Shown: one piece after another, positions 27,501 through 59,290 of the stretch | How positions within the stretch are numbered: the stretch's first letter is position 1 | Layout: each line of letters begins with the position of its first letter | Assembly: GCA_963281255.1 (NCBI GenBank) | Contig: OY725506.1 | Span: forward strand, 62,001 to 126,000 | Source: Aphrocallistes beatrix | Taxonomy: Eukaryota > Porifera > Hexactinellida > Sceptrulophora > Aphrocallistidae | Direction of reading: 5' to 3' | Length of the DNA: 64,000 bases | Notes under the pieces: generated by a model | What the model saw: the letters and a program-made list of their open reading frames with translations, nothing else | Told to the model about the DNA's origin: nothing | The model's database searches: none | Program-made: the position numbers and the translations under genes

Positions 27501-28425
27501 ATTAATAGCTCCTCACCTCTTCAGGAAGAATGGTGAGTAGAATGAGGAGAAAAGGAACGAAGGCTAAGTCCGTACTGAATCTAACAAGCAATAAACATAA
27601 ACATCTCCTATCAACCATTAGGAGATAATGGAATGCAGGACTATTCTAATTATAGAACTCACTTGTTGATAAAGTCGTCGACTATATTAGTCCATGACGT
27701 CATCATAATGGCCAGGTCTGCTAGAGCAAGAGCAAGCTACGGACAATGGCGCATAAGGGAGAGTTGAGAGGTGTGAAAATATGAATATACGCCTCACCTG
27801 AACTTTGATTGTTTTAGTAACGCCAGGCATGCTAACTATGTTATTAATGAGCGACTCTTTGAGCGCCTAAACACGGACAAACACAAATAAACAACAACAA
27901 AACTTGAATAAACACGAGTAGAGATGCACGTACATTGTGTGAATCTACTGGTATCTCACTGAAATGGTCCTTTATCTAAAAATAGAAAATAATCCTATAA
28001 GAATAGCACTTCTATAATAAATGCGAATAAAAGATTAATATCTTCATCCTATAAAGGTGTTAATGGCACAGAATCAAGTGCGACACAATTCCATCAGCTG
28101 AGTTGTGAGTGGAACTGACCTTAGTTTTCATCGTGTACGCTGCGAAGTAAGAGGAGTGCTCGTTCCTATTCAGCTTCAGCAAGACGTCTGCTATCTCCCA
28201 GCCATACACCTATAAACAAACAAACAAACAAACAAATAAACAAACAAATAAACAAATAAACAAATAAATAAACAAACAAATAAACAACATGGTGGTATAA
28301 TCACAGGTGGAACTCACAGAGTTCTGTATCTGCTCGAGACACTTGGATGCCTCTACGGATCCCTGAAGATACAGCGCATCCAACAGCTGATACACGTACT
28401 CCGTGGTTGGCTTCTCCTCGCTCAT
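12503..28425 (-). CDS. TNPO3: transportin-3, importin-beta family receptor for SR proteins
   Basis: Thirty exons, all in phase, give about 924 residues against 923 in the human protein. Exons run from 28425-28318 (MSEEKPTTEYVYQLLDALYL) through 28209-28120, 27975-27934, 27866-27798, 27736-27663, 27580-27517, 27359-27264, 27178-27146, 27087-26992, 26898-26824, 26765-26665, 26449-26374, 26270-26208, 26149-25997, 25928-25812, 25735-25644, 25495-25356, 24556-24423, 23548-23396, 21180-21083, 20925-20871, 18677-18607, 18066-17997, 17677-17561, 16989-16895, 13592-13442, 13287-13215, 13142-13051, 12744-12635 and 12569-12503. Segments such as WEIADVLLKLNRNEHSSYF, HSCYLYLGSIIVDEYG and NNPDTVDDFFRLSGR match TNPO3 closely. 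It carries Ser/Arg-rich splicing factors into the nucleus with Ran. Introns are mostly 58-320 nt. The three longest (3302, 2215 and 2193 nt) each contain another gene on the same strand. Exon 20 could instead end nine bases earlier at a GC donor; the GT site is preferred. Confidence 0.95.
13790..16369 (-). CDS. class C GPCR, GABA-B receptor-like, intronless, nested in TNPO3
   Basis: One uninterrupted frame of 859 residues with ATG at 16369. It starts with a signal peptide (ILAALFLCSFVTHLVC). A periplasmic-binding-protein type ligand domain follows to about residue 450 (YVAVFGGGCSVATSEVAAL, GWKRVAIINQQNPIF). Seven membrane segments lie from about 480 to 745, beginning GLVDVLSLLIVLYITFYIAV and ending near LLNVLLTTTITGLPPVYV. 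The C-terminal tail has a heptad-rich stretch (RIVQDMSLLRNRCESLQ, LITQIGDLKVEMERR) like the coiled-coil used by GABA-B receptors to pair. There is no Cys-rich linker, which also fits the GABA-B branch. It sits wholly inside TNPO3 intron 25 on the same strand and has its own TATA box. Lack of introns in a neighbourhood of intron-rich genes suggests a retrocopy or an ancestrally intronless lineage. The ligand cannot be told. Confidence 0.9.
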   Translation of the reverse strand: MQAHSILAALFLCSFVTHLVCEQELYILGLIPETGIRWTEPYARYSAQLALNHIRENSTILPGYELKIDWQDTMCDGGSGLKTFVDSLANGRSYVAVFGGGCSVATSEVAALAHKYGLAQIAYASTAPNLGDKEKFPRFVRGVPSDVNAVPPRAKFIVDNGWKRVAIINQQNPIFVSSSHSMEIVLGELNVEYRVEDFASDADFPLETSVERLGDNLINNGYRIMIANMYEDAAIKLFCGLLKRPKYRLLLHPHSTWIFLGWFTDNWHNKPEVLEEAGCTAEEVADASNGALGFLVAHSESRFMGTDSDTQTEYGYTVNQLYQMYRDLTLANISNPAQFDSTSDVHDAYVYDSMWSLALALDRSEKQGFNLTEISRSLVFQDERYFVATSNFSQAVYEGMLNFTFSGWSGEIQYEGHERFDSRVQLLEFVNGKLEFRYEFFNIPRNRENYRNLSGIETKGERVGFEFWNDGVADDGIFNFLVNPIIPGLVDVLSLLIVLYITFYIAVIAIGKAQKLQSILNSRAALTCSILGGNYLLLLAGVFYVSNDYIIAGSEGNELISFRSNLTHEAMFTEVCDSPLCTFLCMFPVTLLLTAASIIFGGMIGKASIIYLSAVRLDFQSLKKLNKTMVTAWPYVLASLDLALVLIWSFIAPLVLKKEVISSGVTDPPFYRVLQCQSRNEKELERNVFVGIFIAYKSVLVLIGTAMAYNLRNVKKKSLKYWNTITWTMYNMATYTLVLILCFFLITDHNAKLGVLGFLTLLNVLLTTTITGLPPVYVRFYDPHLNKERVKVSGANSRIVQDMSLLRNRCESLQIDKSDLITQIGDLKVEMERRMSVDTIVTSPTQNGEIYSNGNISNV
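16415..16422 (-). promoter_or_regulatory. TATA box of the nested GPCR gene
   Basis: TATAAATA on the minus strand about 46-53 nt upstream of the GPCR start codon at 16369, inside TNPO3 intron 25. It supports independent transcription of the nested gene. A second TATAAAG-like string lies closer, at about 16390, but reads on the plus strand. Confidence 0.45.
17111..17300. mobile_element. 190-bp MITE, pogo/Tigger-like ends
   Basis: Terminal inverted repeats of about 22 bp: left CAGTACACCCTCGCTAATCC, right its complement at 17279-17300. The left flank is TA; the right flank is TG, so the TA target duplication is imperfect. The inside repeats CTAATCCGAA-like strings and codes for nothing. It lies in TNPO3 intron 24. 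Confidence 0.75.
18908..19873 (-). CDS. NUDT6-like Nudix hydrolase, intronless, nested in TNPO3
   Basis: A single frame of 321 residues from the ATG at 19873. The frame is open to 19948, but that upstream part has no ATG. The first 28 residues are rich in Arg and hydrophobics (MLRYLFHHALVRSRSILTT), like a mitochondrial presequence; a second Met about 45 residues on (MASETNPLL) could give a cytosolic form. The Nudix box is complete at about residues 186-208: GHALAGEGF then REVFEETGV, with the metal-binding RE..EE. The region before it (RNQFTFHHAQPDYVQMNRWL) matches the pre-Nudix domain of NUDT6 and its plant relatives. Nudix enzymes cleave nucleoside diphosphates linked to another group; the substrate cannot be told here. 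The gene sits inside TNPO3 intron 21 on the same strand, and its upstream side carries a 118-bp tandem duplication. Confidence 0.88.
   Translation of the reverse strand: MLRYLFHHALVRSRSILTTKLLHRNVTINNPLAPVHSCSRVRSEDRMASETNPLLEMARGDVYNGIILSLAKQEMSAEQFEYLLPQALTKWRSENRRGIHIIIPIGLSELIPIAARNQFTFHHAQPDYVQMNRWLPTNEPNLLPGYATHYVGVGGFVVNGQEELLAVKERYQLVKGVKPMWKFPGGHALAGEGFVEAGIREVFEETGVKCEFRAVLCFRHTMSYRFGCDDVYYVIWYSALNTDVSADPHEIAECKWIPISEYVAMSDAARSENRFAAECYFRAQKSGAGIGMVRMPHPAPGRQDLLVYAVSDTETDSKHKL
20015..20250. repeat. 118-bp tandem duplication upstream of the Nudix gene
   Basis: Two adjacent copies, 20015-20132 and 20133-20250. Both carry TTCTTGTCAGAACTAGACTA, TGTAAACAG, GATGTTGCATAATGAAA and TTCGAACTCAAAA, with scattered differences. 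It lies 140-380 bp upstream of the nested Nudix start, a promoter-like place. Confidence 0.8.
21845..22822 (-). CDS. unrecognised coiled-coil protein, intronless, nested in TNPO3
   Basis: An uninterrupted frame of 325 residues with ATG at 22822. Three helical stretches with heptad character are seen: residues about 20-60 (SELNSEIGLIQDELIGLKG), about 160-210 (LKQIKREVNDIRHLKLNLVE) and about 275-315 (ELLEKFEENKDRVRRLQDE). Between them are Ser/Pro/Glu-rich linkers. Two short Cys pairs, CRTC near residue 14 and CEVC near 158, each stand before a helix and could bind a metal or form disulphides. I do not recognise the family and it is not similar to the coiled-coil cluster at 44-63 kb. It lies in TNPO3 intron 19 on the same strand, with its own TATA box. 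Confidence 0.7.
   Translation of the reverse strand: MNMFRRQQQAQMNCRTCIKLTAKLTEFSSQKSELNSEIGLIQDELIGLKGQVGDLRIEFMSISAPVSERPKLSQFQDQSFFLSSFEETLDEPSFLPHASSSITSHAPMVRPKKFIKTFVPQPTIEEPLSPVSEEKSFTPRTPSEEEYYVDIPSGNPGCEVCTTLLKQIKREVNDIRHLKLNLVEKKEETRNYKVQFETLNRQFQMKRQYSTQMSVNSTDISSHSHTDIRHTLQTRQASFSYFSTPQSSTVPSDEDSTTISEFSSPDSDPLSEVDHLILDEFTELLEKFEENKDRVRRLQDEQSRVVHRMKELLAQKCGVVFTTYD
22861..22869 (-). promoter_or_regulatory. TATA box of the nested coiled-coil gene
   Basis: TATATAAAG on the minus strand about 40-47 nt upstream of the ATG at 22822, nearly the same spacing as in the nested GPCR gene. Confidence 0.45.
23181..23332. mobile_element. 152-bp MITE with TA target duplication
   Basis: Ends are inverted repeats of about 24 bp (CAGTCAGGGTC and, a little inside, TTATTATGAAC on the left; the complement on the right). 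TA flanks both ends (23179-23180 and 23333-23334), as for Tc1/mariner/pogo elements. It holds no coding sequence. It lies in TNPO3 intron 19, upstream of the nested coiled-coil gene. Confidence 0.82.
23591..23616. repeat. CATAG microsatellite
   Basis: Five units of CATAG in TNPO3 intron 19. Confidence 0.8.
25198..25272. repeat. short interspersed repeat, copy B
   Basis: Related to 2820-2896: starts CTATTTATAG, then GGTTTCCCCGTTCAAAACGG and CCGGAAATGA. It lies in TNPO3 intron 17. Confidence 0.5.
28210..28290. repeat. AAAC/AAAT-type microsatellite at a splice acceptor
   Basis: On the minus strand this is a run of TTTG/TTTA units that ends in TTTGTTTATAG, the acceptor of TNPO3 exon 2. The array therefore supplies the pyrimidine tract of the intron. 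Confidence 0.8.
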
Positions 28426-29957: not shown

Positions 29958-32900
29958 CTAGAATCTAATCTTGACAGAACACTGTTCAGCTAACTGCTCG
30001 AGGAGTTGCAACTGTTCTGATTCAGGACTGGATAGCTCAGGTTCGGAAAGGTACAGTTGTCTCACACGTGGAAGTGTCTGTATTAGCCACATTAGCGCGA
30101 CACATGAAGCAGAGGTGAGATTGGAATTTTGTATACCTAACCACCTAATAGCTGGATGGCAGGATAGACTGCCACACAGTACCAGCATACCTGAGTCTTG
30201 GAACGGGGTATTGACTAGTGACAAGTGAACCAGTGAGTTTAGAGCTGACACAGTTCTGTACCAGCAACTCATATCCTCAGAACTGAATTGAGTATGACTC
30301 AGCTTTAAACTCATCAAGTTAGAGCATGACGTGATAACATTGAATAAACTATTCCAGCTGTGAAACCCGACTTCATGTAAAAAAGGTAAATTAATCTCTC
30401 TCAGCGATTTAGAGTTTGAATGGATGAGTTCAGTTAGTGAGTGTAGAAGGGATTCATTGGGAGATGGAGGAGTATCAGAGAATAGACTCAGTTGTGTGAG
30501 AGAGTTAATGCAGTGTAAGGAAGGAATGAGACTGTAGCTATCTTCTCCTTTAGTCTTCCAAACTAACTCTGTTAGGGAGGAGAGGCTTGATATGTCAGGT
30601 GTCACTGGGAGGTAACCTTGAAAATCTTGAATGCAGAGTCCATTAAGCTGATGGTTAGCTATTAACTGGGAGATAATGGACCAATCAGATTCACTCGAAA
30701 CAGGACTATAGAACAAATTCTGTAGAGTAGAAGAGAATTGATTGGCTAAAATAGAAGAGAATTGATTGGCTAACTCTACTAACATCTGTTGGTTCATTTC
30801 ACATTCGTATAACATCAAACTCCCAGTGAATTGATTGGTGCAGGAGAATAGCCGTGGAGAGGAATTGGTGGTTGTCAGGTCACAGGAATGCAAGTGGATA
30901 CTAACTCTAGTGTCAAGTGGCAGAGTGGCAAAGGTGAGGATACTCGTGTACGGATGGATTCCATCAAATTCCTTTTCATTGAAAAACAGTGCTACGTATC
31001 GGACACAACAAGTGGACAGCTGATCGAGGAGGGAGCGGAATTGTGCCGCGGTTACGTAATCAGATTGGAAGTGGATTATTTGGAATTGGCGGACATATTC
31101 CATCGCTCGCAGGAAGCAGTGCCATTCGTTCGGGGAGATGGTGTCGAGGAAATAGAGGTAGAGAGGGGAGGGAAACCTCTCTTTGAAATAGTTGAAGTGT
31201 TCAGGAATGGAATCAGAGTTGGTTTCCATGACGACAGTACAAAGGAGGAGGAATGATTGTGTGAATTCTCTACAATCTGACATGTCAACAAGATCTTTGT
31301 AATGACGTAACTGATCGCTCATGGGAACTTCACAGAGTGACATAGGCACTGGGAGTGCGTGGTGGCAGAGAACGGGAGTCATGAAACCTGCGTCCCGCTT
31401 CAAGATGCCACTAACAAACCGAATCACCATCTTGTACATGGACAGGTACTGGGTGGAAGTCGTGAAGTAGCGGATGATGTAGCACTGATTTCTCCAAGCA
31501 TTGTCGCATATGGAAACTGCCGCCATGAACTCTTGAATGGTCAGGTGTTGGAATGTCCACACCTTCACACGAACACCAAAACTCGTCACTTTAACATGAG
31601 CCTGCATCAGGCCGAGACGTTCACTGTTCAGGGATTCGCCTTCAAGTTTCAGTGGAATGTGTCTGTCAGAAGTTAGTTCTCTTTCGAAAATGCCTTGATT
31701 CGCTTCCAGACCGATTTCATGGATGCATTCTCTGATGGCCGGGTCGAAATTGGACAATTGGAGAACTTTGCTGTGTTCTTTCAGGCCCATTCTGGACAAT
31801 TGGCGCCTGATGATGTATACGATCAGCTGGAGGTACAGGTGGGACAGAGTCTCACTTAGGATGGAATCCGATTGGTTGAATAGAGAGCTGAACAGACTCG
31901 CGTTCACTGGCACGAGTGCGAGCTGTTTTATCTCGTCGTGACGAACGAACATCTCACGGACGGCATTCAACTTTTCAACACTCTCTATTCTTTTCGAGAA
32001 ATAAAGGTCTCGGTTTTGAGGAGAGAATCCGAGGACCTGGAAGTTGTCATCGATCTTGAGATCTTTGCCATAATCGAGATGGAGTTCAGTCCATTGGCTG
32101 GGACGACTTGTCACTAGGATGGTGGAGAGAGTGAGGAAGCGTCTCTCGAGAATTTTACAGAGTAAAGTGGAGTCGAACGGAATGCTCTTAATAAACTCAT
32201 CGGCACCGTCCATGATGATGAACAGTCCCTCTCCGTCTGATCTCAGCAAGTGCTGGGAGAGGGATCGACTCCATTTGGCGCCAAAAGACATGGAAAGGGT
32301 CAGCCATTTCAGAATAAATTCCTCGTCGATCTTATTTTGTTTCTCGTGCCTCGCCTCCTCGAGTTGATGCCACTCCGGATTGCGACACGGGATGGAAACG
32401 GTGTAGCGGAAATTGGTTAGCTGGTGACTGCCATACAGGAAGGCAAAGTGTGTGCAGAGGAAGCTCTTACCACTGCCGGGGTTCCCTATCAGGCACCATA
32501 CTTTACTTTCTGAAGAATCGCTAGTGGTGACAATGGACTCGAAATCTACCACTTCTACCTTTTCGAACTCGACCTTCTCATGGATGTGTCGCAAGAAATC
32601 AATTTCGTTAATGCCACTTTCCTCTTCCATCCTCTTTTCAGGAGTTTCAACCTTTATGACAGTGAGGGGTGTGAATACGGATTCTATGGGGACACTGGCC
32701 TCATCGAGAACAACACTAACATCCTTGTGGTGTGTTTTCAAATACTTTCGTAACCTTATCTGCCAATATGCATTTTCCTCCTCATCAACTTCATTTTCAA
32801 GGTTCAATTCCTGTTGGATTTGGTCACAGAAATCGTCGTTTGAAATATTTTGGAAAGTGGACTTGAAACCTCGGACCTTAATCGCTAAATCTTTTCGTTC

Positions 32901-33386
32901 CATTATCTCTAAGGAATCGCAGAGGTGCTCCAAATCGCCAGTGACTATTTCTTTCTCAACGCAGAGTTTCAACATTTCGTGCGACCCTTCATCTCCCTTA
33001 ACACTCACTTCCGCACTACAGCTGGTTAGTACGACCCATTGTTGTGAGGTTATTTCGGTCGTCAGCAAATCGACTAGAGTTTTGGCGGATTTCGATTGGT
33101 CGCTAGTTCTAGGTTTAAATTGAGGCGAGCTTAGCCATTCTAACTGCCTAGCTTGGTGGAGAATGCTGTGATGGCCAATGGACTGTAAAGCTAAGTCAAA
33201 CCTGCTAGGATCGAAATGTTTCCAATTCTTCAGCGAATTCAAAAACAGAATTGGATCCTTCCCTGTGTCCTGTTGAATCTTGGAGGGTAATTCGATAGCA
33301 TTCTGTAACTTTTGCAGAATTTCTGGTGTCAACAGTTTTCCGAGTTCTGTAAACGCTTTAATTTGTCGTTTTCTATCATCAGACAT
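29958..33386 (-). CDS. NACHT-LRR protein with two DED-like N-terminal domains
   Basis: A single exon of 1142 residues, ATG at 33386. NACHT proteins are STAND ATPases that act as switches, often in innate immunity or cell death. The P-loop is GNPGSGKS at residues 301-308 and the Walker B strand is FIIMDGADEF at about 389-398. Leucine-rich repeats of the ribonuclease-inhibitor type fill the C-terminal part from about residue 930 (LREINLPFLHEVGFHSW, LVHLSLVNTPFQDSGMLVL). Residues about 10-85 and 100-180 are two helical segments that look like death-fold domains of the DED type; this is by pattern only. A 21-nt in-frame duplication repeats NQFSSIL/NQFSSTL near 30.75 kb. The gene is intronless and stands alone. 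Whether it is an immune receptor is inference from family. Confidence 0.88.
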   Translation of the reverse strand: MSDDRKRQIKAFTELGKLLTPEILQKLQNAIELPSKIQQDTGKDPILFLNSLKNWKHFDPSRFDLALQSIGHHSILHQARQLEWLSSPQFKPRTSDQSKSAKTLVDLLTTEITSQQWVVLTSCSAEVSVKGDEGSHEMLKLCVEKEIVTGDLEHLCDSLEIMERKDLAIKVRGFKSTFQNISNDDFCDQIQQELNLENEVDEEENAYWQIRLRKYLKTHHKDVSVVLDEASVPIESVFTPLTVIKVETPEKRMEEESGINEIDFLRHIHEKVEFEKVEVVDFESIVTTSDSSESKVWCLIGNPGSGKSFLCTHFAFLYGSHQLTNFRYTVSIPCRNPEWHQLEEARHEKQNKIDEEFILKWLTLSMSFGAKWSRSLSQHLLRSDGEGLFIIMDGADEFIKSIPFDSTLLCKILERRFLTLSTILVTSRPSQWTELHLDYGKDLKIDDNFQVLGFSPQNRDLYFSKRIESVEKLNAVREMFVRHDEIKQLALVPVNASLFSSLFNQSDSILSETLSHLYLQLIVYIIRRQLSRMGLKEHSKVLQLSNFDPAIRECIHEIGLEANQGIFERELTSDRHIPLKLEGESLNSERLGLMQAHVKVTSFGVRVKVWTFQHLTIQEFMAAVSICDNAWRNQCYIIRYFTTSTQYLSMYKMVIRFVSGILKRDAGFMTPVLCHHALPVPMSLCEVPMSDQLRHYKDLVDMSDCREFTQSFLLLCTVVMETNSDSIPEHFNYFKERFPSPLYLYFLDTISPNEWHCFLRAMEYVRQFQIIHFQSDYVTAAQFRSLLDQLSTCCVRYVALFFNEKEFDGIHPYTSILTFATLPLDTRVSIHLHSCDLTTTNSSPRLFSCTNQFTGSLMLYECEMNQQMLVELANQFSSILANQFSSTLQNLFYSPVSSESDWSIISQLIANHQLNGLCIQDFQGYLPVTPDISSLSSLTELVWKTKGEDSYSLIPSLHCINSLTQLSLFSDTPPSPNESLLHSLTELIHSNSKSLREINLPFLHEVGFHSWNSLFNVITSCSNLMSLKLSHTQFSSEDMSCWYRTVSALNSLVHLSLVNTPFQDSGMLVLCGSLSCHPAIRWLGIQNSNLTSASCVALMWLIQTLPRVRQLYLSEPELSSPESEQLQLLEQLAEQCSVKIRF

Positions 33387-36079
33387 TTTAACCTAAAGGA
33401 AAGTGTCTCGAGTAAATTCCTAACTAAAATATTGCTAATGTTTAGTTGTATTCAGTGTTCCCGCCTAGCGGGTTTAGCGCACTATTCACCACGCTTAGCT
33501 TGTCGAATAACTTTCTTGGGTTAATGGGGCTATGAATATATTAAATTAGGCGTAATTGTATTCGTATTTGGTTTCTGCTAACGTATTTGTATTTGATCAA
33601 GAAAAGTGTATTGAACCCAACTCTGACATAAGACATCCAATACAGCCTACATTGTGATATACAGTGAAATCATTGCGAATGTTTAGACCATTTACACCAG
33701 TATACGAGTATCAACGAAAAAGACGATCGATTCGCCAACACCAGTTTCGCACTTTAGTAACAAAAAAATAATTTAAGACGAATTTAAAGACGAATTAAAA
33801 TAAGGCCATGCAAAATAAATTACTTGTTTATCTCCCTGTCCCTTAACCTCCGTACGGACAATATGTTACTTTATTCTAGAACTTTTATTTTTATTTGTTG
33901 TTGTTAAATAATGCAATTTACTCGAATAAACCGCACAAAAATTGCAAAATTAACGCTTTCCATTTATCCTGAGGGAAACACTGGTTGTACTATCACATAA
34001 ATTCTTATTGGTAGAAACTCTAGAAGCAAATTGTATCCCGCATACCCCAACATTTATAATAAGTGCATGCTCCCACTAGAAAACGAATATGAGAAATGTG
34101 AGCTTAACTCTATTCGGATAATAAGCTTGCATCCTCCAGTTAATTTGATACCACAGAATACCACTCCTCTTAACCATGAAAATCCTGTATGAAACACTTG
34201 GTTACGCAAAACTTGCTTGTTATTATCCATGGTTATTCAATAAATAAACAACAATGAAACTACCTCTTAACTTTATTCAATACTATCGATGGTTATTAGA
34301 CGATCAATTAACATGGAAATAAGGACTTTGCCATAATTCTACATTATCCATGGTTTACGATGAATAAACAATACTGAAATTAGCTCTTAGCTTGATTCTA
34401 CATATCCATGGTTCGTAAAGTGTATCTACAGGATAGTACAGACTCTAATGTAAGATTTACTCTTCCAACTTACTTCAGTTCACAAAGAGATGAATAATCT
34501 TTCAAGAAATGACGAATAACTGTAATATGGAACTAAAAATAGAAACAGATGATAAAATAAGATCTCACACAGTAAATATCCAACTTTACAACTCTGAGAA
34601 TATTCTAATTCAGGAAGTAAACAACAACAAATTATAGAAATTTCATTTATGTCTCCACTAGCCTTAGTTTTCTTAAAATCGATGAAATAGAAATAGCATT
34701 TTTTCCGATTTTTTCAATAAAAAATGCTTCAAAAATGATCGAAATCGAATTAATTCAAAATAAAATAGGACTCATATTCGTAACGACATATTTACAGCAT
34801 AGTTATGTCTCTACAGAATTGTTAATTCCACTGATTTATTCAAAAATTTCAACAAAAAAAACAATTAAAATACAGAACATAAACATTGGTCGAATAATGT
34901 TTGTTTGTTCTGAAATAAATAATTCAGTCATTTTGATTTTGTTGTTGATCTAGACTACAGATATAAAAGAGCTTATTTGTATGATTAAATTGTGAATAAA
35001 CAACTGAATTCAGTGGAATATAACTAAAATGGAAGCATTAACTTACTCGTATCAAATTCAAGTTTGTTTGTTTCTGTAGATTTGTGTGTTGATGCTCAAT
35101 GATTGAAATGTTTGTGTTATTATTAGTGTTTGGATTCGGTTGGAATCGTTTGAAATGTGTCGATTAGTCTTGAATAGTTGTTCAGTATAGCTGTTGCTAG
35201 CTTGAAGATAATGGTCTAGATACTATCTCTATTTAACTGTGCATACAAGTAACGAGATTGGGACAGAGAACTTTGCTACAGAGTCACTCATGAATTGATT
35301 AGTCCCTATCTTGTCTGGAACTGACCCTTAAGCACATTCCCTAGCTTAATCACTGATGTCTCGTGTTACAATAGCTACGTTTAAGCTAGGATGTTTCTAG
35401 AATGTTCTGAACTTATTCAAGTGGCTGTGGTTAGTGTCACAGGTGGTGCACTAGCTGTAAAACTATCAATGTGACCTTTTGGTATCCTAGATTTAAAAGT
35501 TGAAAATCAATTTATCTACTTTGTCCTGAGAAACATGGACAACTAAAGTTGAAGTTTTCATTAAACTTAAAGGTTGCACTCTAGCAACTGCTTTACTGAA
35601 CTTATTGAACACTCAGTATTTGACTTCACAAAAACTTAAATTTTCTTTGAATATATAAATTCCATAAAATTACAAAATCTCCTAACAACTTTTGCTGTAA
35701 AGTCACTGTTATTGGTTTATGGAATGCCAGATATCGGGTATATTGAGTAGGAGGTCCTAGATATTCATCTCTTCACTATCTCCTTCATCATTATTAATAA
35801 GAGTATTTAACTAGAGTAAATCTTCTTGTTTTTTATACGCATTGCTGTGTCTCTATTGACGTAAGTAATCTCAGAAAACATCTCCATTTTCTTATTATTC
35901 AAACACTGAAGATAATCCCAACTCCAAAAGTGACCATCTTATGGGTGGTTGTCCAACAAAAATATGATTTTTAATAAGTAATTATGGTTTGCAGACGCTT
36001 TAAGGGAAACTTTCCACTAAAAATATAATCAAGAATGTATGATATTAATTGCAATCGTTACTAAGAATAGAATCTAATG
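33387..36079. other. 2.7 kb without a gene
   Basis: Very AT-rich spacer upstream of the NACHT gene. It holds a degenerate tandem repeat at 34222-34420 and short open frames with no family pattern. No RNA gene was recognised. Confidence 0.45.
34222..34420. repeat. degenerate ~60-bp tandem repeat
   Basis: Three and a third units, each starting near ATCCATGGTT or ATCGATGGTT and containing AATAAACAA and TAGCTCTTA-like blocks. The units are well diverged, so the array is old. Confidence 0.55.
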
Positions 36080-36722: not shown

Positions 36723-39700
36723 CTAAATACGCGTATCCATGAAGGAGACATTCGACTGCTGAGATTCGGAGAAAGATCCTAAATTATTCGCACATTCCAA
36801 AGTCACTCTCTTGTTGCTATTATTTGGTTGGTCTTGAGAGTTCCGTTTTCTCTCAGGTCTCGACGAACTGAGCGCTTGTGTGATGATGTCCTTTCCAAAT
36901 TTAGATTTGATCTATAAATAGAATTAAACATAAACCTCACTAACTGACCAATCAACATGAGAGTTAAAGCACCAAAGAAAAATTAACATTTCAACAGTTA
37001 GTTCTATTTATAGGTTGAATGGGGGACAGAAGAGGAAACAGTTAAAAATAGAATTTAAGCACCATATTTGGGCGCCATAGGATAACATCAGGCAGACCGG
37101 ACCATGGATACTGGATATTACATTCCATCGCACAACTCCGTAACTAAGTCTAGCTACCTTCTGGATCAGGTCCTGGTCGTTGAACCATGGATGCTGGATT
37201 GCTTCCTGCACGCTGATTCGTTTGTCTGGGTCAACCTCTAGCAGGGATTTGATGAGGGAGATTGGAATGTCAGACACCTCCTTCCAGTACTCCTAAAATT
37301 AGAGTAGAAAAATACTCACATTTTCACACCTTTTAAAACGATAACTAACTTAATAAACACAAAATAGAGATATATTTAGACGAAATGCTATTTTAAATGA
37401 TCAGCTGATTTTTTGCGAATATTTTAAATATTTAATTTAACAGTCAATTACGCAATTATCACAGAATTTCGCAGACATAGATCTGACCAATCAGTGAAGA
37501 GCATCAGGAGTGGTTTCAGGCGGGTAAAGGGGTGGCCTACCTTCGGGAAGGAGTAGAGCCCCTGCGTAATCTGCTCCCGCAGAGAGTGGGTCTTGATTTC
37601 GTTGGAGAAGGGAGGGTACCCGGACAGCTGAATGAAGAGAATCACCCCTAAGCTCCAGCAGTCGCACTTCTGTCCGTAGCCGCGAGATTCCGCGTTGATC
37701 AGCACTTCGGGCGCCAGATAGGAGGGCGTGCCACAAAGTGTCTTCATGAGGGAGTTCTCTCCCACCACCCGCGACAACCCGAAGTCTGTCACCTTGATGG
37801 TGCATTCCTGATCCTGCGACATTAGCAACACGTTCTCGGGTTTCAAGTCCCTGTGAGTTATGTTCTGGCTGTGTAGATACCTGAGAGGGAGATTGGAATG
37901 TAGAGACATTACAATGACTGAAAGAAACTTTTCTAACACAGTCAATACACAGAAATTTCTAGATGTTCGTTCCATTTAGAATGGATATCTGAACATCTGT
38001 TTGTTCGTTTGAAACAGAGAGAATGACGTCACACACCTCACTGCGAGTAGAGCTTGGAAGAAGATAAATTTAGACAATTCCTCCTTCATCTTTCCTAGCG
38101 ACACAATCCAGTCGAACAATTCGCCTCCCTCCATCAGCTCCAGAACGATCAAGAAGAGAGTGTCTGTCTGGTAGGCCCCCTTGATCTCAATCACGCAGGG
38201 GTGGTGCAGCTTCCGGAGGATTTCAACCTAGTAAACAACCAGTAAACAACTAGTAAACAACTAGTAAACAACTAGTAAACAACTTGTATATAACTTGTAA
38301 ACAACTAGTAAACAACTAGTAAACAACTTGTATATAACTTGTAAACAACTAGTAAACAACTTGTATATAACTTGTAAACAACTAGTAAACAACTAGTAAA
38401 CAACTTGTATATAACTTGTAAACAACTTGTATATAACTTGTAAACAACTAGTAAACAACTAGTAAACAACTTGTATATAACTTGTAAACAACTAGTAAAC
38501 AACTTGTATATAACTTGTAAACAACTAGTAAACAACTAGTAAACAACTAGTATATAACTTGTAAACAACTAGTAAACAACTTGTATATAACTTGTAAACA
38601 ACTAGTAAACAACTAGTAAACAACTTGTATATAACTTGTAAACAACTAGTAAACAACTAGTAAACAACTTGTATATAACTTGTAAACAACTAGTAAACAA
38701 CTTGTATATAACTTGTAAACAACCAATAAACAACCAGTAAACAGCTAGTAAACAACTAGTAAACTAGTAAACAGCTAGTAAACAACTAGTAAACTAGTAA
38801 ACAAGCTAAGAAACAAGAGCTGACCTCTAGCATGGCAGACTTGTAAGTCTTCTCGTCTTTGTCGAACTTCTTCATTTCAATGAGTTTAACGGCGGACCTC
38901 TCTCCCGTCTCTTTGTCGAAGCAGAGCCTAACTTCCCCGCACGCGCCCTTTCCCAGCGTCTTCCCGATAGCATAGCGACACAAGAACTCCCTAGGAATGC
39001 CAGGGTAGTCACAAGGACGCTGCTTTTCTTTGTAGACCCAAGCCACATTCTTCTTCAAACTCAGAGAAATCTCTGCGTTATCCTTCAGATGATAGGTCTT
39101 GTTCTTCCCTACCTAGTAAACAAAAACAAGCTAGAAGTAAACACAAACAAGCTAGAAGTAAACACAAACAAGCTAGAAGTAAACACAAACAAGCTAGAAG
39201 TAAACACAAACAAGCTAGAAGTAAACAAAAACAAGCTAGAAGTAAACACAAACAAGCTAGAAGTAAACACAACAAACTAGAAGTAAACACAACAAACTAG
39301 AAGTAAACACAAACAAGCTAGAAGTAAACACAAACAAGCTAGAAGTAAACACAAACAAGCTAGAAGTAAACACAAACAAGCTAGAAGTAAACACAACAAA
39401 CTAGAAGTAAACACAACAAACTAGAAGTAAACACAAACAAGCTAGAAGTAAACACAAACAAGCTAGAAGTAAACACAAACAAGCTAGAAGTAAACAAAAA
39501 CAAGCTAGAAGTAAACACAAACAAGCTAGAAGTAAACAAAAACAAGCTAGAAGTAAACACAAACAAGCTAGAAGTAAACACAACAAACTAGAAGTAAACA
39601 CAACAAACTAGAAGTAAACACAAACAAGCTAGAAGTAAACACAAACAAGCTAGAAGTAAACACAAACAAGCTAGAAGTAAACACAAACAAGCTAGAAGTA

Positions 39701-41887
39701 AACACAACAAACTAGAAGTAAACACAACAAACTAGAAGTAAACACAAACAAGCTAGAAGTAAACACAAACAAGCTAGAAGTAAACACAAACAAGCTAGAA
39801 GTAAACAAAAACAAGCTAGAAGTAAACACAAACAAGCTAGAAGTAAACACAAACAAGCTAGAAGTAAACACAAACAAGCTAGAAGTAAACACAACAAACT
39901 AGAAGTAAACACAACAAACTAGAAGTAAACACAAACAAGCTAGAAGTAAACACAAACAAGCTAGAAGTAAACACAAACAAGCTAGAAGTAAACACAACAA
40001 ACTAGAAGTAAACACAAACAAGCTAGAAGTAAACACAAACAAGCTAGAAGTAAACACAAACAAGCTAGAAGTAAACACAACAAACTAGAAGTAAACACAA
40101 ACAAGCTAGAAGTAAACACAAACAAGCTAGAAGTAAACACAAACAAGCTAGAAGTAAACACAACAAACTAGAAGTAAACACAACAAACTAGAAGTAAACA
40201 CAAACAAGCTAGAAGTAAACACAAACAAGCTAGAAGTAAACACAAACAAGCTAGAAGTAAACACAAACAAGCTAGAAGTAAACACAACAAACTAGAAGTA
40301 AACACAACAAACTAGAAGTAAACACAAACAAGCTAGAAGTAAACACAAACAAGCTAGAAGTAAACACAAACAAGCTAGAAGTAAACAAAAACAAGCTAGA
40401 AGTAAACACAAACAAGCTAGAAGTAAACACAAACAAGCTAGAAGTAAACACAAACAAGCTAGAAGTAAACACAACAAACTAGAAGTAAACACAACAAACT
40501 AGAAGTAAACACAAACAAGCTAGAAGTAAACACAAACAAGCTAGAAGTAAACACAAACAAGCTAGAAGTAAACAAAAACAAGCTAGAAGTAAACACAAAC
40601 AAGCTAGAAGTAAATACAACAAACTAGAAGTAAACACAACAAACTAGAAGTAAACACAAACAAGCTAGAAGTAAACACAAACAAGCTAGAAGTAAACACA
40701 AACAAGCTAGAAGTAAACACAAACAAGCTAGAAGTAAACACAAACAAGCTAGAAGTAAACACAAACAAGCTAGAAGTAAACACAAACAAGCTAGAAGTAA
40801 ACACAAACAAGCTAGAAGTAAACACAACAAACTAGAAGTAAACACAAACAAGCTAGAAGTAAACAAAAACAAGCTAGAAGTAAACAAAAACAAGCTAGAA
40901 GTAAACAAAAACAAGCTAGAAGTAGACAATGTGTTTACATGGTGGAGAAATAGAAATGTCGAACAACAAAGTTCTAATATTAAATATTCTAAATATAGCT
41001 TCAAATATAAATATGAACTCTGCTCTTAATTGACGAAATTCCTGGTCGGATGCGTACAGTTAAACGGATCGGACATATAAACAACACAAATGCCACTGTG
41101 TCGTGTTCTAAATATAAATAACTCACACCTTCTCTCCATTGACAAAGGTGCCATTGCTGGATTTGTCGTAGAGGAACACTCCGTACTTCCTCTCGTCCCC
41201 TGGACACCCCTCAACCCGCTCAGACTTGGGCTGCTCTCGGAAGATCATGAAGTGGACCTTGGACAGCGCCTGCCAGTTCGGAACCTCGCAACCGTTCTGG
41301 TGCTCAGTTATGCATACTGAGCTGGTGTCTTCTCTCCCAAAAGTGTACTCATCCTCAATCAGGTCAACCTACAATCATGCAATGCTAAGTTCTGTACTGT
41401 GTTAATTAATTAACCTACACGTATCAGAAAATATACTCTATCCATGGTCCATATGGGTTATACTATAGTAATTGTGTCGCATACCCTCAAATTGTGTCAT
41501 GTGCCACAATTTGGTGGCGGTGGTTATCAAGTTATGATTGAACCACAAGGCCATTTGAGTATCCGAAACAAAATCTTATAATACTACGATATATCTCAAA
41601 ATACCACGGTATTAATTAATCCATGGTCCTAATATTAAGATCTCAAACACCACACAACAGAACAACCCTCTTTGAGTTTCTAAATTGATCGTCATCGAAG
41701 AAACACACAATAATAATCTATATTTAGTAACATCTGTCCACTGTTTGTGTGGTCTAACCTTGGAGTACGCGTTGTGGAGTGGGAAGAGTCGACCCCACAC
41801 GCTGGCCTCCAGATCATCCACCTGGGAGGGCTCTGACACCTGACTGGACTGTGCCACTATCTCACTCACGTCCAGTGTCTCCGCCAT
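36723..41887 (-). CDS. CHEK2: checkpoint kinase 2
   Basis: Seven exons in phase: 41887-41759, 41368-41129, 39112-38825, 38227-38037, 37880-37541, 37292-37158 and 36911-36723, for 503 residues. CHK2 is activated by ATM after DNA breaks and phosphorylates cell-cycle and apoptosis factors in the nucleus. The N-terminus has a small SQ cluster (SSQVSEPSQ). The FHA domain spans about 45-130 ([16 protein letters not shown]). The kinase domain has [12 protein letters not shown], the VAIK-type Lys in [26 protein letters not shown] and [11 protein letters not shown]. The C-terminus has a basic nuclear signal (RPERKRNSQ) and more SQ sites. Introns 2 and 3 consist almost entirely of tandem arrays; the acceptors of exons 3 and 4 are the last units of those arrays. 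The exon 7 acceptor is TTCTATTTATAG. Confidence 0.95.
38228..38815. repeat. 11-bp tandem array filling CHEK2 intron 3
   Basis: About 50 units. Read on the gene strand the unit is TTGTTTACTAG, with variants TTGTTTACAAG and TTATATACAAG. The array abuts exon 4, so the last unit is the real splice acceptor. It covers nearly all of the 597-nt intron. Confidence 0.93.
39113..40925. repeat. 20/21-bp minisatellite in CHEK2 intron 2
   Basis: More than 80 units, unit CTAGAAGTAAACACAAACAA with a 20-bp CACAACAAA variant and a CAAAAACAA variant. On the gene strand each unit holds GTGTTTACTTCTAG, which reads like a 3' splice site. Long stretches repeat with a period near 580 bp (39692-39912 recurs at 40272-40492), so there is higher-order structure. 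It takes up 1.8 kb of the 2.0-kb intron and ends one unit from exon 3. Confidence 0.95.
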
Positions 41888-42030
41888 CAGCCAATCAGAA
41901 TGCTAGCTTATACGACCATATACGATGGGATTATAAGAGGTGTGAAAATATGATTAACAAATGCAGAAAACACGGTTTAATATCAAGACAATCATAAATA
42001 GAAATTCATAATAAATTAATATCTGCAATA

Positions 42031-42110
42031 CAAACAAACAAACAAACAAACAAACAAACAAACAAACAAACAAACAAACAAACAAACAAACAAACAAACA
42101 ACAACAACAA
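42031..42110. repeat. (AAAC)n microsatellite in the AIF1 3' flank
   Basis: About 17 pure CAAA units followed by ACA units, starting five bases past the AIF1 stop codon. It would be transcribed as GUUU repeats in the 3' UTR. Confidence 0.92.
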
Positions 42111-45132: not shown

Positions 45133-45819
45133 TTATTTGAATCGCTCATAGCGCTTTTTAGCACAAGGATCATATTTGGCTTTTTTACTCGTGGGTATTT
45201 CAGGTGAAGATTGTCTAGGCAAGACAGTTTTCTTCTTAGTAGGCAATGAACTAAAATACTCCTTATTAACTGTAAATGGGGAAGCTATTATATTCTCATA
45301 GTTAGGTTCAGGAGACGGAGTAGAATAACTTTCACTGCTCTCATAAAATCGCTCTTCACTCAGCAAACTCAGTTCACTCGCAGATTCGTATCCCGCCATA
45401 TCAGGTTCAAAAGAGATATCTAGTTCTACATCAATTCCACCGATTTCCTCTTTCAGAGCATCAAAGTCAAAATCTAGAGTTAGTTCCAGTTCCAATTGTT
45501 CATCAAGCTCAGCTGTCAGTTCTTGGATCTTGTCTGCAATATCTTCGTTGATATTTTCTTGAAGATTGAAGAGTGAATTCTGAGATAATTCTTGAGCATT
45601 ATGTTCTCTAAGCTTAATCAGAGTTTGTTTATCTTTCTCGATTTGTTTGTTTTTATTGTTGTATTCTATTTCTAAATCATCAATTTTTTTATCCAACTCA
45701 AGTTTCCGTTGATTCACCAGAGAAGTAAGTTCTGAGAATTTCTGGTCCAGATTCTCTCTCATTTCTTGGAATTTGTTCTTTTCAGCTGATACTTTTGCAG
45801 AACCCCTTTTGGTTGCCAT
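45133..45819 (-). CDS. coiled-coil family copy 2, TRIM-like coil without RING or B-box
   Basis: A single exon of 228 residues. The family core is complete: KNKFQEMRENLDQKFSELTS, LVNQRKLELDKKIDDLEIEY, NNKNKQIEKDKQTLIKLREH, then QNSLFNLQENI and a C-terminal helix ending DALKEEIGGIDVEL. The pattern resembles the coiled-coil after the B-box in TRIM-type E3 ligases, but no RING, B-box, NHL or SPRY part is present. The tail is acidic and Ser-rich, then strongly basic (KKAKYDPCAKKRYERFK), possibly a nuclear signal. A YAG lies five bases before the ATG. Function unknown; oligomerisation is a fair guess. Confidence 0.8.
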   Translation of the reverse strand: MATKRGSAKVSAEKNKFQEMRENLDQKFSELTSLVNQRKLELDKKIDDLEIEYNNKNKQIEKDKQTLIKLREHNAQELSQNSLFNLQENINEDIADKIQELTAELDEQLELELTLDFDFDALKEEIGGIDVELDISFEPDMAGYESASELSLLSEERFYESSESYSTPSPEPNYENIIASPFTVNKEYFSSLPTKKKTVLPRQSSPEIPTSKKAKYDPCAKKRYERFK

Positions 45820-45961
45820 TGTTTCTGGAATATGCTAAACTTAAAACAAGTAAATAAAAATGATGATAAAATTACATACTTTCATAGATAAAGTTTGCAT
45901 CTTAATCACGGGGTGTTTTTAAAACCAATGTGAAATCCCTGGGTTCCGATTGGCTAAGGTG

Positions 45962-46075
45962 TGAAGATTTACAAAACTTGCAGCCAGGCGCCCAATCTCA
46001 TAATAACAAATACCAAGGAATACCATGGATACATCCAAACCTGAGATTGATTACCAAGAATGCATACGTCATGAT
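45962..46075. repeat. duplicated segment, copy 1
   Basis: Starts GAAGATTTACAAAACTTGCA and matches 47529-47640 over about 110 bp (CGCCCAATCTCATAATA, CAAACCTGAGATTGATT). Non-coding. Confidence 0.75.
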
Positions 46076-46144
46076 TGCATCCATAATCAGCTTCAGGCCT
46101 GAGAGTGAATACATTAGTTTAACGTGGACTTAAGTAATAACCAA

Positions 46145-46497
46145 TCAAAAGTCACCAAATAGACCCACTTCTACTTCTCTGTGTGTTTCCAACTGAAAGT
46201 TCAGTTCAGAAGTTGGGTCTCCTCTCCTCTTGTGTAGTCCGTATTTCTGGAGACTTGTTTGTTTCTCCTTAGGTGTCATCTTCAAATCTAACTGACTAAT
46301 CACATCTTTCAAAGTATCGAAATTCCAAAACAGCTTGAGTGAATCAACGCAAACTTGAGATTCAACTCAAGTTTGCGTTGATTCACTAAAGAAATAAGTT
46401 CTGAGAAATTCTGAGTTATTTTCTCGCTCATTTCTTGGAAAATATCCTTTTGGAGTGGCGAAATATTTTCAGACCCCAAATTCCTATTGGTTGCCAT
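46145..46497 (-). pseudogene. coiled-coil family copy 3, rearranged
   Basis: The N-terminal part (MATNRNLGSENIS, then ISLVNQRKLELN) and the C-terminal part (FWNFDTLKDVISQLDLKMTP) are both recognisable. The middle of the coil is lost and replaced by a perfect 22-bp inverted repeat, so the two parts are no longer in one sensible frame. The tail ends HREVEVGLFGDF. Confidence 0.75.
46338..46387. repeat. perfect 22-bp inverted repeat with 6-nt loop
   Basis: Left arm AGTGAATCAACGCAAACTTG plus AG, right arm its exact complement. Both arms are the coding sequence for NQRKLEL of the family. It marks the deletion junction in copy 3. Confidence 0.92.
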
Positions 46498-46509
46498 AGT
46501 TTCTACAAG

Positions 46510-46727
46510 CTTACCAAAGAAAATAACAACAAACGAATAAATAAATTACCAGATTTGTTTGAGACTTAACAAATAAATTAAAATAATTGTAAACTTCATC
46601 AAATCTATTATTCGCATAGCTCAGAAAACCAATGGAACAATTCGAGTACAACGTATGTACGTACGTCTGCGTGACCCTAAAAATTGCACACAAATTTAGA
46701 CCAAATATTCCTTAAATGATCAAGATG
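46510..46727. repeat. 5' flank of copy 3, duplicated at 47013-47212
   Basis: The two stretches share CTTACCAAAGAAAA, TCGCATAGCTCAGAAA and AAATTGCACACAAATTT in the same order. At 47013 the coding part next to the flank is gone. Confidence 0.75.
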
Positions 46728-47012
46728 TAATCTGAAAAGTATCAAAACCTAAGTTGCAAATTTTATTTAATCCCAATTTGATCAATCCACCTAATAGATT
46801 ATCTAGGAACAACCTGTGGAACAAGTTACACAATTTGAATCATGACCATGTATGGAATAAAATAAGCTCAGACCCTGTGTAACTAACCATGTCATCCATT
46901 AATATATATATTATTATCGTAGTCAGAACAGTATGCATGTTTTCTTGTTTGAAGTAGCTATTATTAGTTTAAATGTGTTGCAGGTAGAAAATTGAGTGTA
47001 GTCTCTACAGAC

Positions 47013-47212
47013 TTACCAAAGAAAAACAATCAAAATAACAACAAATTGATAAATAAATGCGCACTACCAGATTTGATGAGACTTAACAAAGAACTCAAAA
47101 TAAAATCTATCATTCGCATAGCTCAGAAACCAATGGAACAATTAGAGTATAACGTCTGTGCTTAAAAATTGCACACAAATTTGGACAAATATTCCTGAGA
47201 TGATCAAGAACA
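47013..47212. repeat. orphan copy of the copy 3 upstream flank
   Basis: See 46510-46727. No family coding sequence remains at its left side. Confidence 0.7.
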
Positions 47213-47463
47213 AGTTTGACAGTGAAGTTCACAAATTCGAGATAAAATGTATTTATAAACAACAAAAAAAAAAAACGATTAAAAACAATATTTATAGAGT
47301 CCTGGTATGTAATTATAATTCAACAAACGCACGTAGCACTGAAAATGGAAGCTATACAGCTCTAAGAATTCAACGATTAATCTATTTAAAACATTTTTTT
47401 GTTTGGATTGAAGACTGTTATGTTTGGGTAGATGGTAGGAGGCGAGTCTGATGGGAATAAGAA

Positions 47464-47528
47464 GTTAGAATTGGCTAATTTTAGATCTATCTTATCAATC
47501 TCTTGTTTAATTTTAGTAAAGTTCCAAA
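47464..47528 (-). pseudogene. C-terminal relic of the coiled-coil family
   Basis: The minus strand reads WNFTKIKQEIDKIDLKLANS, matching the last helix of copies 4 and 6. Nothing else of the gene remains here. Confidence 0.7.
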
Positions 47529-47640
47529 GGAAGATTTACAAAACTTGCATCCAGACGCCCAATCTCATAATAGTAAATGCCATGGAATACCATGGATATG
47601 TCCAAACCTGAGATTGATTGCCGAGAATGCATATGTGTAT
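47529..47640. repeat. duplicated segment, copy 2
   Basis: Matches 45962-46075. Confidence 0.75.
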
Positions 47641-48004
47641 AGATGTGTAGTGCAGATTAAATAAAAAGATAGAGAGGGGAAATGGGACAGAAAGGAGGGA
47701 TGAGACATAAAGAGAAATGGAACAGAAAGAGCAAATGGGACATAAAGGGGAAACGGACATAAAAGGGAATGCCACAGTAAGCGGAAAGGAACAGAAAGGG
47801 AAATGAGACATTTTAAGTGGTGACCATGATGGAATATAATAGATTCAGGGGTTTGTGTTTTAAAAAATATTACCTAGTATATATATACAGTTCGAGATAT
47901 AACGGATTTATTAAGGCCTAGTATGTAATTCTAATTCAATAAATAGACGTACGTAGCACTGAAATATAAACGATAAAGATCTTAGGAATTCTATTAATAT
48001 ATTT

Positions 48005-48595
48005 TTATGGTAGTTTGGATTTCGGAGATGCTTTGGGGTAAGGTGAGTAGTTTGAAGATTTTAGTGTGACTTGTTTGATCGGACCTGAGTAGCTGGAAGA
48101 TTGGAATCGTGGGACTGACTTTTGAGAGAATTGTGGGACTGACTTTTGAGAGAATGAGAGCAGTGACGCAACTCGGGATTTTCTTTGAGCTAATATCACA
48201 CGTGCTTCATCGACTGGGTTGACTAATTTTATGTCTATCCTATCAATCTCTTGTTTAATAATATTAAAGTTCAATGTAAGTTTTAGCTGTGACTTTGATT
48301 CTACATCGAGTTTCTGAATTTTATCAGAAATCTCTTTAATAATATTGTTCTGTACATCCATCAGAGCGTTCTGTCCTAACTTCTGTTCTGTCATTTCGCG
48401 TAGCTCTCTCATAGTTTGTTTATCTTTCTCGATTTGTTTGTTTTTGTTGTTGTATTCTATTTCTAAATCATCAATTTTGCGATCCAAATCACATTTCCGT
48501 TGATTCACTTTTGAAGTGAGTTCTGTGAAACTTTGAGTTAATTTCTCTCTCATTTCTTCGAAAATGTTTTTTCTTGTCTGTACCACCCCAAACAT
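48005..48595 (-). CDS. coiled-coil family copy 4
   Basis: A single exon of 196 residues from the ATG at 48595 (MFGVVQTRKNIFEEMREKL). The frame is open 16 codons further, to another ATG, but that extension is hydrophobic and not shared by paralogues. The core is complete (SKVNQRKCDLDRKIDDLEIE; QNALMDVQNNIIKEISDKI; NIIKQEIDRIDIKL). The tail holds a short repeat, QKSVPQF/QKSVPRF, and ends in a Ser/Pro/Lys-rich stretch (SPYPKASPKSKLP). It is closest to copy 6 in the coil. Confidence 0.78.
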   Translation of the reverse strand: MFGVVQTRKNIFEEMREKLTQSFTELTSKVNQRKCDLDRKIDDLEIEYNNKNKQIEKDKQTMRELREMTEQKLGQNALMDVQNNIIKEISDKIQKLDVESKSQLKLTLNFNIIKQEIDRIDIKLVNPVDEARVILAQRKSRVASLLSFSQKSVPQFSQKSVPRFQSSSYSGPIKQVTLKSSNYSPYPKASPKSKLP

Positions 48596-48643
48596 AATGA
48601 TGCAATTGTAGGAAGTAACTAATGAGAAGAAACACAGAAGCAA

Positions 48644-52435: not shown

Positions 52436-52768
52436 CTAGACACAGATTAAGAACGTAGAGTGTTAGGGAGTTTTAATCATAATTATTAACCCTCATTTCT
52501 TATACTCGAATATTAGAGTAGGTTATGCCTCATTGAATAAAGAGCTAATACAAAAGGCTGTACTCATAACTTGATAGGACAGTCATTCACAAATAGCAGC
52601 GTAGCATACGACATGGTACGGAGAGATGTGAGTAAGGAAACAAAAACGCTTCGCGCATTTGCGTATCACGAATAGCGAACGATTCGTGGGCATCTGGGAA
52701 TATCCAAAGAATTCATGGGTATTATAAGGAAATGAGACAGTGCATGTGTGAACCATGGATGCACTTAC

Positions 52769-53254: not shown

Positions 53255-53366
53255 TGTTTCTAGATAAATAAATAATCAGTTAAAATGTACGTACGTATAG
53301 TATCCTTAGGAAGCTATGATGATATCACAAGTCATATTAAAAACCAATTGAAAGTGTTAAATATGT

Positions 53367-54717: not shown

Positions 54718-54719
54718 TA

Positions 54720-57621: not shown

Positions 57622-57734
57622 CGCAATCCGTTGCTAAGTAAAGAAAAAAATCACAATTGTGGTTTGCACCAAAACATCAATAAAATCGTTGATATTGCAA
57701 CACTTGTTATTATTTATGTTTATTTATATATACA

Positions 57735-59269: not shown

Positions 59270-59290
59270 TTCAATCAGCTGATAAAATCA

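What the first reader, a model, noticed from the sequence alone, without database searches (positions are those of the whole stretch)
38228..40925. CHEK2 introns 2 and 3 built from tandem copies of 3'-splice-site-like units
On the gene strand the 11-bp unit of intron 3 is TTGTTTACTAG and the 21-bp unit of intron 2 contains GTGTTTACTTCTAG. Both are pyrimidine-rich and end in TAG. The last unit of each array abuts exon 4 or exon 3 and is the acceptor itself. So each intron appears to have grown by amplifying its own acceptor, leaving dozens of decoy sites. Use of an upstream unit would put an in-frame TAG just before exons 3 and 4, cutting the protein after the FHA domain. TNPO3 intron 1 shows an early form of the same pattern with TTTG units.
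Basis: partly seen in the sequence, partly recalled or inferred. Interest (0 to 1): 0.8.

Follow-up and report, generated by a model that had tools for sequence, protein, structure and literature searches.

The report
Intron arrays made of splice-acceptor-like repeats
Two introns of an animal's CHEK2 gene are filled with tandem copies of a short sequence that looks like the signal ending an intron, and nearly the same short repeat sits right before coding sequence in other genes, which suggests that introns can lengthen by copying their own end signal.

Summary
CHEK2 intron 2 (39113-41128) is 90% an 88-unit array of ~21 bp; intron 3 (38228-38824) is almost wholly an 11-bp array. In both, the last unit is the acceptor; homology to human Chk2 fixes the junctions. 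In intron 2 that unit is a variant lacking TTC. A whole-genome search (100.5 Mb) for three spaced exact copies of TTTACTAG found three loci (reversed control zero): CHEK2 intron 3, and arrays whose last exact copy ends 1 and 15 nt before the start codons of a Tim17/NDUFA11-like and a PSMG3-like gene. A general acceptor bias is not supported: 8 of 15 other intronic arrays lie nearer the acceptor, and two other acceptor-like motifs give fewer hits than reversed controls. All 145 upstream AGs examined give a premature stop, but each scores below the true acceptor. Truncation from intron 2 would fall inside the FHA domain, not after it. Best reading: near-neutral local amplification of acceptor-proximal sequence, close to 'sequence stuttering' of chicken introns. 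Without RNA or relatives, decoy use and function are untested.

The parts
39113..41128 (-). CHEK2 intron 2 (2016 nt), phase 0
   Evidence: Gene model, sequence, Chk2 alignment across the junction
39113..40930 (-). 88-unit ~21-bp acceptor-like array filling the 3' 90% of intron 2; 311-bp higher-order repeat
   Evidence: TRF 39115-40928; unit parse; exact unit patterns hit this array alone in the genome
39113..39130 (-). Last unit CTTGTTTTTGTTTACTAG = acceptor of exon 3 (variant lacking TTC)
38825..39112 (-). CHEK2 exon 3 (end of FHA domain, start of kinase domain)
   Evidence: Pfam FHA and Pkinase, PDB 3i6u
38228..38824 (-). CHEK2 intron 3 (597 nt), phase 0
38228..38794 (-). 11-bp array (TTGTTTACTAG / TTGTTTACAAG / TTATATACAAG), 77-bp higher-order repeat, last unit = acceptor of exon 4
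   Evidence: TRF; unit parse
38037..38227 (-). CHEK2 exon 4 (kinase domain, N-terminal part)
   Evidence: the exon's far end is taken from the gene finder and not checked further
28214..28287 (-). TNPO3 intron 1 TTTG/TTTA microsatellite, 4 nt from the acceptor
   Evidence: gene name from recall of the protein (no Pfam hit)
42030..42101 (-). (TTTG)18 then TATTGCAG, in the same-strand gap of about 227 nt between the AIF1 stop and the CHEK2 ATG
   Evidence: AIF-1 Pfam match

Best explanation
These are intron-resident minisatellites that arose locally from T-rich sequence that included the 3' splice site, and then grew mostly by duplication of internal blocks (slippage or unequal exchange), bounded by the exon, which cannot be repeated without harm. 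SHOWN: the unit is acceptor-like, lies on the sense strand, the terminal unit in CHEK2 is the acceptor, and the three loci with TTTACTAG triplets end at, or within 15 nt of, an exon start or start codon. SHOWN in CHEK2: higher-order repeats inside the arrays, and a terminal acceptor that outscores every internal AG tested. INFERRED: the splice machinery uses the last unit because only there a G and a coding exon follow the AG; internal units are mostly ignored and their rare use gives a premature stop and probably decay of the RNA; the arrays are close to neutral passengers that lengthen the intron. Two sister arrays sit directly before start codons in tight same-strand gene pairs, where the TAG may serve as acceptor of a 5'-UTR intron or of a trans-spliced leader (inferred, not tested).
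For: Arrays and unit structure. Whole-genome pattern, three TTTACTAG with 2-20 nt between: 17 hits at 3 loci, reversed control 0. The C18 array ends ...TTTACTAGT|ATG of a Tim17/NDUFA11-like gene (ATG 320 nt after a sulfatase stop). The C17 array ends ...TTTACAAGTAG|ATG of a PSMG3-like gene (PAC3 1.3e-13; PDB PAC3 aligned from residue 7), with the ATG about 210 nt after a Lon stop. Chance that a point lies within 40 nt upstream of a predicted exon start on its strand: 0.034; P(3 of 3) 4e-5 (the 40-nt limit was set after seeing the data; loci taken as independent). TTTACTAG pairs lie at 6 loci; of the three extra ones, C3 is a degenerate run near the end of an intron; if it is counted, P(at least 4 of 6) is 2e-5. 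True acceptors score above all 96 and all 49 upstream AGs tested. Among 17 arrays in well-supported introns, those with an A/T skew of 0.3 or more are T-rich on the sense strand in 9 and A-rich in 1 (CHEK2 intron 2 is one of the 9).
Against: General acceptor anchoring fails: 8 of 15 other intronic arrays nearer the acceptor; 3 other T-rich CAG-ending arrays fetched, 0 of 3 end at a well-supported sense-strand exon; TTTNCAG and GTTTAG triplets give fewer hits than reversed controls (overlapping hits, several from the same arrays). Pairs of TTTACTAG as such are no more frequent than the reversed control (31 hits, 28 of them in the three arrays, vs 27). TTGTTTACTAGR is not a common word (34 vs 38 control), so independent birth of the same unit at several genes needs an explanation. 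TTGTTT is not enriched near acceptors (5 of 52 vs 8 of 52 mid-intron). At C3 I read the acceptor by eye, 36 nt past the last TTTACTAG; the gene finder starts the exon 49 nt past it, which would fall outside the 40-nt limit. The C4 pair lies after a stop codon and the C1 pair has no predicted gene. At L045 a TTTG array has its predicted exon on the opposite strand.
Confidence: 0.55

Rival explanations
1. Incidental: ordinary intronic minisatellites that happen to fill the intron; the exon edge simply stops the array, and the T-rich strand is kept because an acceptor needs a pyrimidine tract.
For: Intron 3's array also reaches within 30 nt of the donor; a 22-bp array in a G-alpha intron starts 7 nt from the donor and leaves 26 nt to the acceptor; no general acceptor bias.
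Against: Intron 2 keeps about 200 nt of unique sequence on the donor side and none on the acceptor side; all three loci with TTTACTAG triplets end at an exon start or start codon.
Confidence: 0.25
2. Dispersal: one TTGTTTACTAG array seeded the others by template switching, gene conversion or a small mobile repeat, rather than separate births at each acceptor.
For: The same 11-12-bp core at C17, C18 and C20, and in degenerate form at C3, although the word is not common in the genome; introns 2 and 3 end in the same TTGTTTACTAG.
Against: The 21-bp unit was found only in intron 2; periods and variants differ by locus (12 at C17, 11 and 10 at C18, 11 at CHEK2); no shared flanks were seen by eye in the fetched loci (no alignment was run).
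Confidence: 0.13
3. Chromosome-end instability (not exclusive of the others): the arrays grow because they lie in recombining, GC-rich chromosome ends, whatever their sequence.
For: The three arrays lie about 33, 100 and 109 kb from a contig start (P 2.5e-4, tested after seeing it); GC falls from 0.495 to 0.35 across the window; human VNTRs are enriched in subtelomeres (PMC7608644, passages including part of the abstract).
Against: Repeat coverage near contig ends without the CHEK2 arrays is 3.5% (83 kb from two contigs), interior 3.5% (190 kb); contig ends may not be chromosome ends; GC at CHEK2 itself is already 0.37.
Confidence: 0.12
4. Regulatory decoys: the array is kept by selection so that internal acceptors yield poisoned CHEK2 mRNA under some conditions.
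For: All 145 upstream AGs examined give a premature stop; neighbouring units together offer a branch-like TTTAC and an AG at a workable distance (inference from the sequence and recalled splicing rules).
Against: All tested internal AGs score below the true acceptor; nearly the same unit occurs at unrelated genes; higher-order repeats look like unconstrained growth (inference).
Confidence: 0.05

Closest known systems
'Sequence stuttering' of introns on chicken dot chromosomes (PMC12954441; section 7 part 1 and passages, including parts of the abstract and discussion, seen)
   Same: Local expansion of short sequence inside introns in gene-rich regions, bounded by intact exons, imperfect tandem copies; in a subset of genes the repeated block carries the exon edge with its splice donor or acceptor through the intron.
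   Different: Here units are 11-21 bp and AT-rich, carry only the acceptor and no exon bases, and one unit family recurs at several genes. The species is not identified, but a 100.5-Mb genome is far too small for a bird (inference). The paper also mentions the pattern in GC-rich gerbil genes (data not shown). Length polymorphism, shown in chicken, is untested here.
Repeat tract at the 3' splice site of CFTR exon 9 (PMC12171016 and others; search listing only; details partly recalled)
   Same: A tandem tract directly before an acceptor that can change use of the next exon.
   Different: TG and T tract without AG units; no decoy acceptors.
Canine LHX3 intron 5, six 7-bp repeats (PMC3223203, passages)
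   Same: Tandem repeats inside a short intron whose copy number matters to splicing.
   Different: GC-rich units (GCGCCCC) without AG; the effect is ascribed to donor-to-branch distance.
Human subtelomeric VNTRs, some intronic (PMC7608644, passages)
   Same: Intronic minisatellites near chromosome ends.
   Different: The enriched class is GC-rich; acceptor-derived units are not mentioned in the passages I saw.

Membership tests
Sequence stuttering (PMC12954441) | Locally expanded imperfect tandem copies confined to an intron between intact exons | tested here: met
Sequence stuttering (PMC12954441) | Repeated blocks of tens to hundreds of bases, less regular than common microsatellites | tested here: inconclusive
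   Units are 11 and ~21 bp, with higher-order blocks of 77 and 311 bp
Sequence stuttering (PMC12954441) | In a subset, the block includes an exon edge with its splice site | tested here: inconclusive
   The acceptor is included, but no exon bases are copied (array units go on with C or T, the exons begin with G). Intron-only stuttering also counts in the paper.
Sequence stuttering (PMC12954441) | Located in GC-rich, highly recombining, gene-rich chromosomes | tested here: inconclusive
   GC gradient 0.495 to 0.35 from the contig start, but 0.37 around CHEK2; recombination not testable
Sequence stuttering (PMC12954441) | Intron length varies between individuals | not testable with these tools
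   One assembly, no reads
Dispersed intron-creating elements (introners; recalled) | Many copies of one element forming introns across the genome | tested here: not met
   The 21-bp unit is at one locus; TTTACTAG triplets at three loci; exact patterns only, so diverged copies would be missed
Interspersed repeat with an internal (TTTG)n seen on contig C1 | Flanks ...TATTAAAA.C.CTAGGATT(TTTG)n and TCCGAATTGATTGAAG... | tested here: not met
   No such flanks at the CHEK2 arrays by eye; 18 of 20 fetched C1 loci show them or a close variant, by eye

The most novel reading that the evidence does not exclude
In this animal a specific acceptor core (TTGTTTACTAG) repeatedly becomes the seed of a minisatellite at 3' splice sites, in cis introns and at start-codon-adjacent acceptors of tightly packed genes (perhaps trans-splice sites), so that acceptor duplication is a recurrent, sequence-dependent route of intron and intergenic growth, with the true site kept by the following exon.
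Probability: 0.25. Interest if true: 0.72.

Novelty: new variant of a known kind. Interest (0 to 1): 0.5.

Why it matters
If right, it shows in a small animal genome how an intron lengthens about tenfold (roughly 200 unique bases to 2016) by copying its own end signal while presumably still being spliced at the last copy. With 96 upstream AGs that all score below the true site, CHEK2 intron 2 is a natural test of how the spliceosome picks one AG among many near-equals. It would also carry intron 'stuttering', described in birds in 2026 (with a mention of gerbil genes), to a distant animal and to an AT-rich unit.

Tried and rejected
Acceptor-like arrays as a genome-wide class: rejected on hit counts. 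(TTTG)n as a general acceptor-anchored array: 18 of the 20 C1 arrays fetched (of about 26 in the capped listing) lie, by eye, in an interspersed repeat; of the other two, L041 is intronic on the sense strand and L045 has its predicted exon on the opposite strand. (TTTG)3 followed by TAGG within 12 nt has 27 hits against 121 for the permuted TGAG, but many listed TGAG rows belong to that repeat, so this control is weak. TTGTTTACTAG as an unusually common acceptor: rejected. Chromosome-end repeat density as the whole cause: not supported. Three other T-rich CAG-ending arrays (C16, C15, C7) do not end at a well-supported sense-strand exon. Placing the species: sponge genome papers were listed, but nothing identified it. 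Spliced-leader trans-splicing is reported in a glass sponge (PMC10282587, passages); that says nothing sure about this animal. Literature searches for acceptor-derived intron repeats or their setting: of a library that lacks most subscription journals; the chicken paper (listed) was the only close match seen.

Limits of method: gene models come from a home-made gene finder trained on 273 kb, with an acceptor term that mildly favours Y before AG and G after it, so the matrix leans the same way and includes the two CHEK2 acceptors among its 71. Only introns flanked by two exons scoring 12 or more were counted (71); four of the 15 other arrays lie in one L015 intron. In some searches intron 3 was cut two bases too long at its donor end; AGs in the first 30 nt were skipped in both introns, so AGs there are not in the 96 and 49. 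Genome patterns were exact.
Full report
What is there. The window lies in an unnamed 100.5-Mb genome, contig C20, 62-126 kb from its start. On the minus strand a CHEK2 gene has intron 2 at 39113-41128 and intron 3 at 38228-38824. The piece from exons 2-4 matches human Chk2 (3i6u, 5.2e-43) over both junctions without an insert, and carries an FHA and a kinase domain. Intron 2 holds an array of 88 units, mostly 20-21 bp, and intron 3 an array of mostly 11-bp units. The last unit of each is the acceptor of the next exon. In intron 2 the acceptor unit is a variant without TTC; the units at the donor side resemble it (TTTTTG type), while the bulk is a higher-order repeat of 311 bp, about 15 units. 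So growth was internal, and the acceptor unit looks old rather than the latest template (inference).

Is it more than chance. Exact patterns of the 21-bp unit hit only CHEK2 intron 2 (44 hits; 85 hits; reversed controls 0). Three spaced copies of TTTACTAG occur at three loci, reversed control zero. The two other loci were found by sequence alone, not by position: at C18 the array ends one base before the ATG of a Tim17/NDUFA11-like gene (Tim17 0.00042, below Pfam's cut-off, so the name is tentative), and at C17 it ends, after one degenerate unit, at TAG|ATG of a PSMG3-like gene. Pairs of TTTACTAG add three loci: a degenerate run near the end of an intron at C3 (36 nt before the acceptor that I read by eye, 49 nt before the gene finder's exon), one after a stop codon at C4, one without a predicted gene at C1. 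Outside the three arrays, pairs are not in excess (31 hits in all, 28 in the arrays; reversed control 27). With 469 predicted exons in 273 kb the chance for 3 of 3 loci to end within 40 nt upstream of an exon start is 4e-5 (limit chosen afterwards; loci taken as independent).

Is it general. No. In 71 well-supported introns there are 17 arrays; without CHEK2's two, 8 of 15 lie nearer the acceptor. Acceptor-like triplets give fewer hits than reversed controls for TTTNCAG (109 vs 469) and GTTTAG (26 vs 225). Three such arrays fetched with other units do not end at a well-supported sense exon. What may be general is strand: of the 17, those with an A/T skew of at least 0.3 are T-rich on the sense strand in 9 and A-rich in 1; outside that set, the TTTG array of L045 has its predicted exon on the opposite strand.

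How it may work. A matrix from 71 acceptors gives the true acceptor of intron 2 a score of 8.2 (median of all its AGs 6.4), with none of 96 upstream AGs equal or higher; intron 3: 8.0, median 4.5, none of 49. From the matrix, the gap comes largely from the base after AG (G at the exon, C or T in the array). At the C18 start codon the last TAG scores 6.0, no better than several others in the array. The nearest upstream AG lies 16 and 20 nt from the acceptor AG, ordinary for the sample (median 20, 69 introns); the penultimate unit of intron 3 has lost its AG. Proximity of an AG to the branch point is known to matter (PMC10655562, passages). Use of any upstream AG examined would give a premature stop: 94 of 96 and 47 of 49 inside the insert, the rest after a frameshift. 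From intron 2 this would end the protein inside the FHA domain, from intron 3 in the N-terminal part of the kinase domain. Whether any is used is unknown.

Setting. The three TTTACTAG arrays lie within 109 kb of a contig start (P 2.5e-4) and the window's GC falls from 0.495 to 0.35. Yet repeat coverage near the contig ends without CHEK2 equals that of the interior (3.5% each). Both start-codon arrays and the (TTTG)18 run before CHEK2 lie in short gaps between genes on the same strand (stop to ATG about 210 nt at C17, 320 at C18, 227 at CHEK2), as in operon-like pairs. A trans-spliced leader is reported in a glass sponge (PMC10282587, passages); here it is only a guess.

Relation to known things. 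The nearest is 'sequence stuttering' in chicken dot-chromosome introns, where blocks at times including the splice site are copied through the intron (PMC12954441). Locality and form agree; GC, unit size, exon content and organism differ; length polymorphism was not testable. I file this as a variant of intronic tandem expansion with an acceptor-bearing unit.

Noticed in passing
L013:530-857 (C18): 22-bp pyrimidine-rich array (CCCCTGTTCCTCTCATACCTCT, 14.8 copies) fills a G-alpha intron (gene named by eye) and starts 7 nt from the donor; two further introns of the gene are filled by TTTG runs.
   Followed up: partly
window 42030-42101: (TTTG)18 followed by TATTGCAG in the ~227-nt gap between AIF1 and CHEK2 on the same strand; a candidate outron or 5'-UTR intron acceptor.
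   Followed up: partly
L035-L054 (C1): 18 of 20 fetched (TTTG)n on contig C1 belong, by eye, to an interspersed repeat with flanks like TCTTATATATTAAAA..CTAGGATT and TCCGAATTGATTGAAGAATTGGCAAG.
   Followed up: partly
window 45133-63253: Tandem family of eleven similar coiled-coil-like ORFs (QEMRE..LVNQRKLELD..EYNNKNKQIEKDKQ) on the minus strand (counted by eye).
   Followed up: no
window 53474-54643: Two adjoining transposase-like ORFs on the plus strand inside that gene cluster (by eye).
   Followed up: no
window 57738-58377: 31-bp array, 20.6 copies, 98% matches, between two members of the cluster.
   Followed up: no
window 29958-33392: 1144-aa single ORF that looks like a NACHT/NLR receptor (named by eye).
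   Followed up: no
G000:C5: A contig of 33,681 bases among megabase contigs, perhaps mitochondrial; not read.
   Followed up: no
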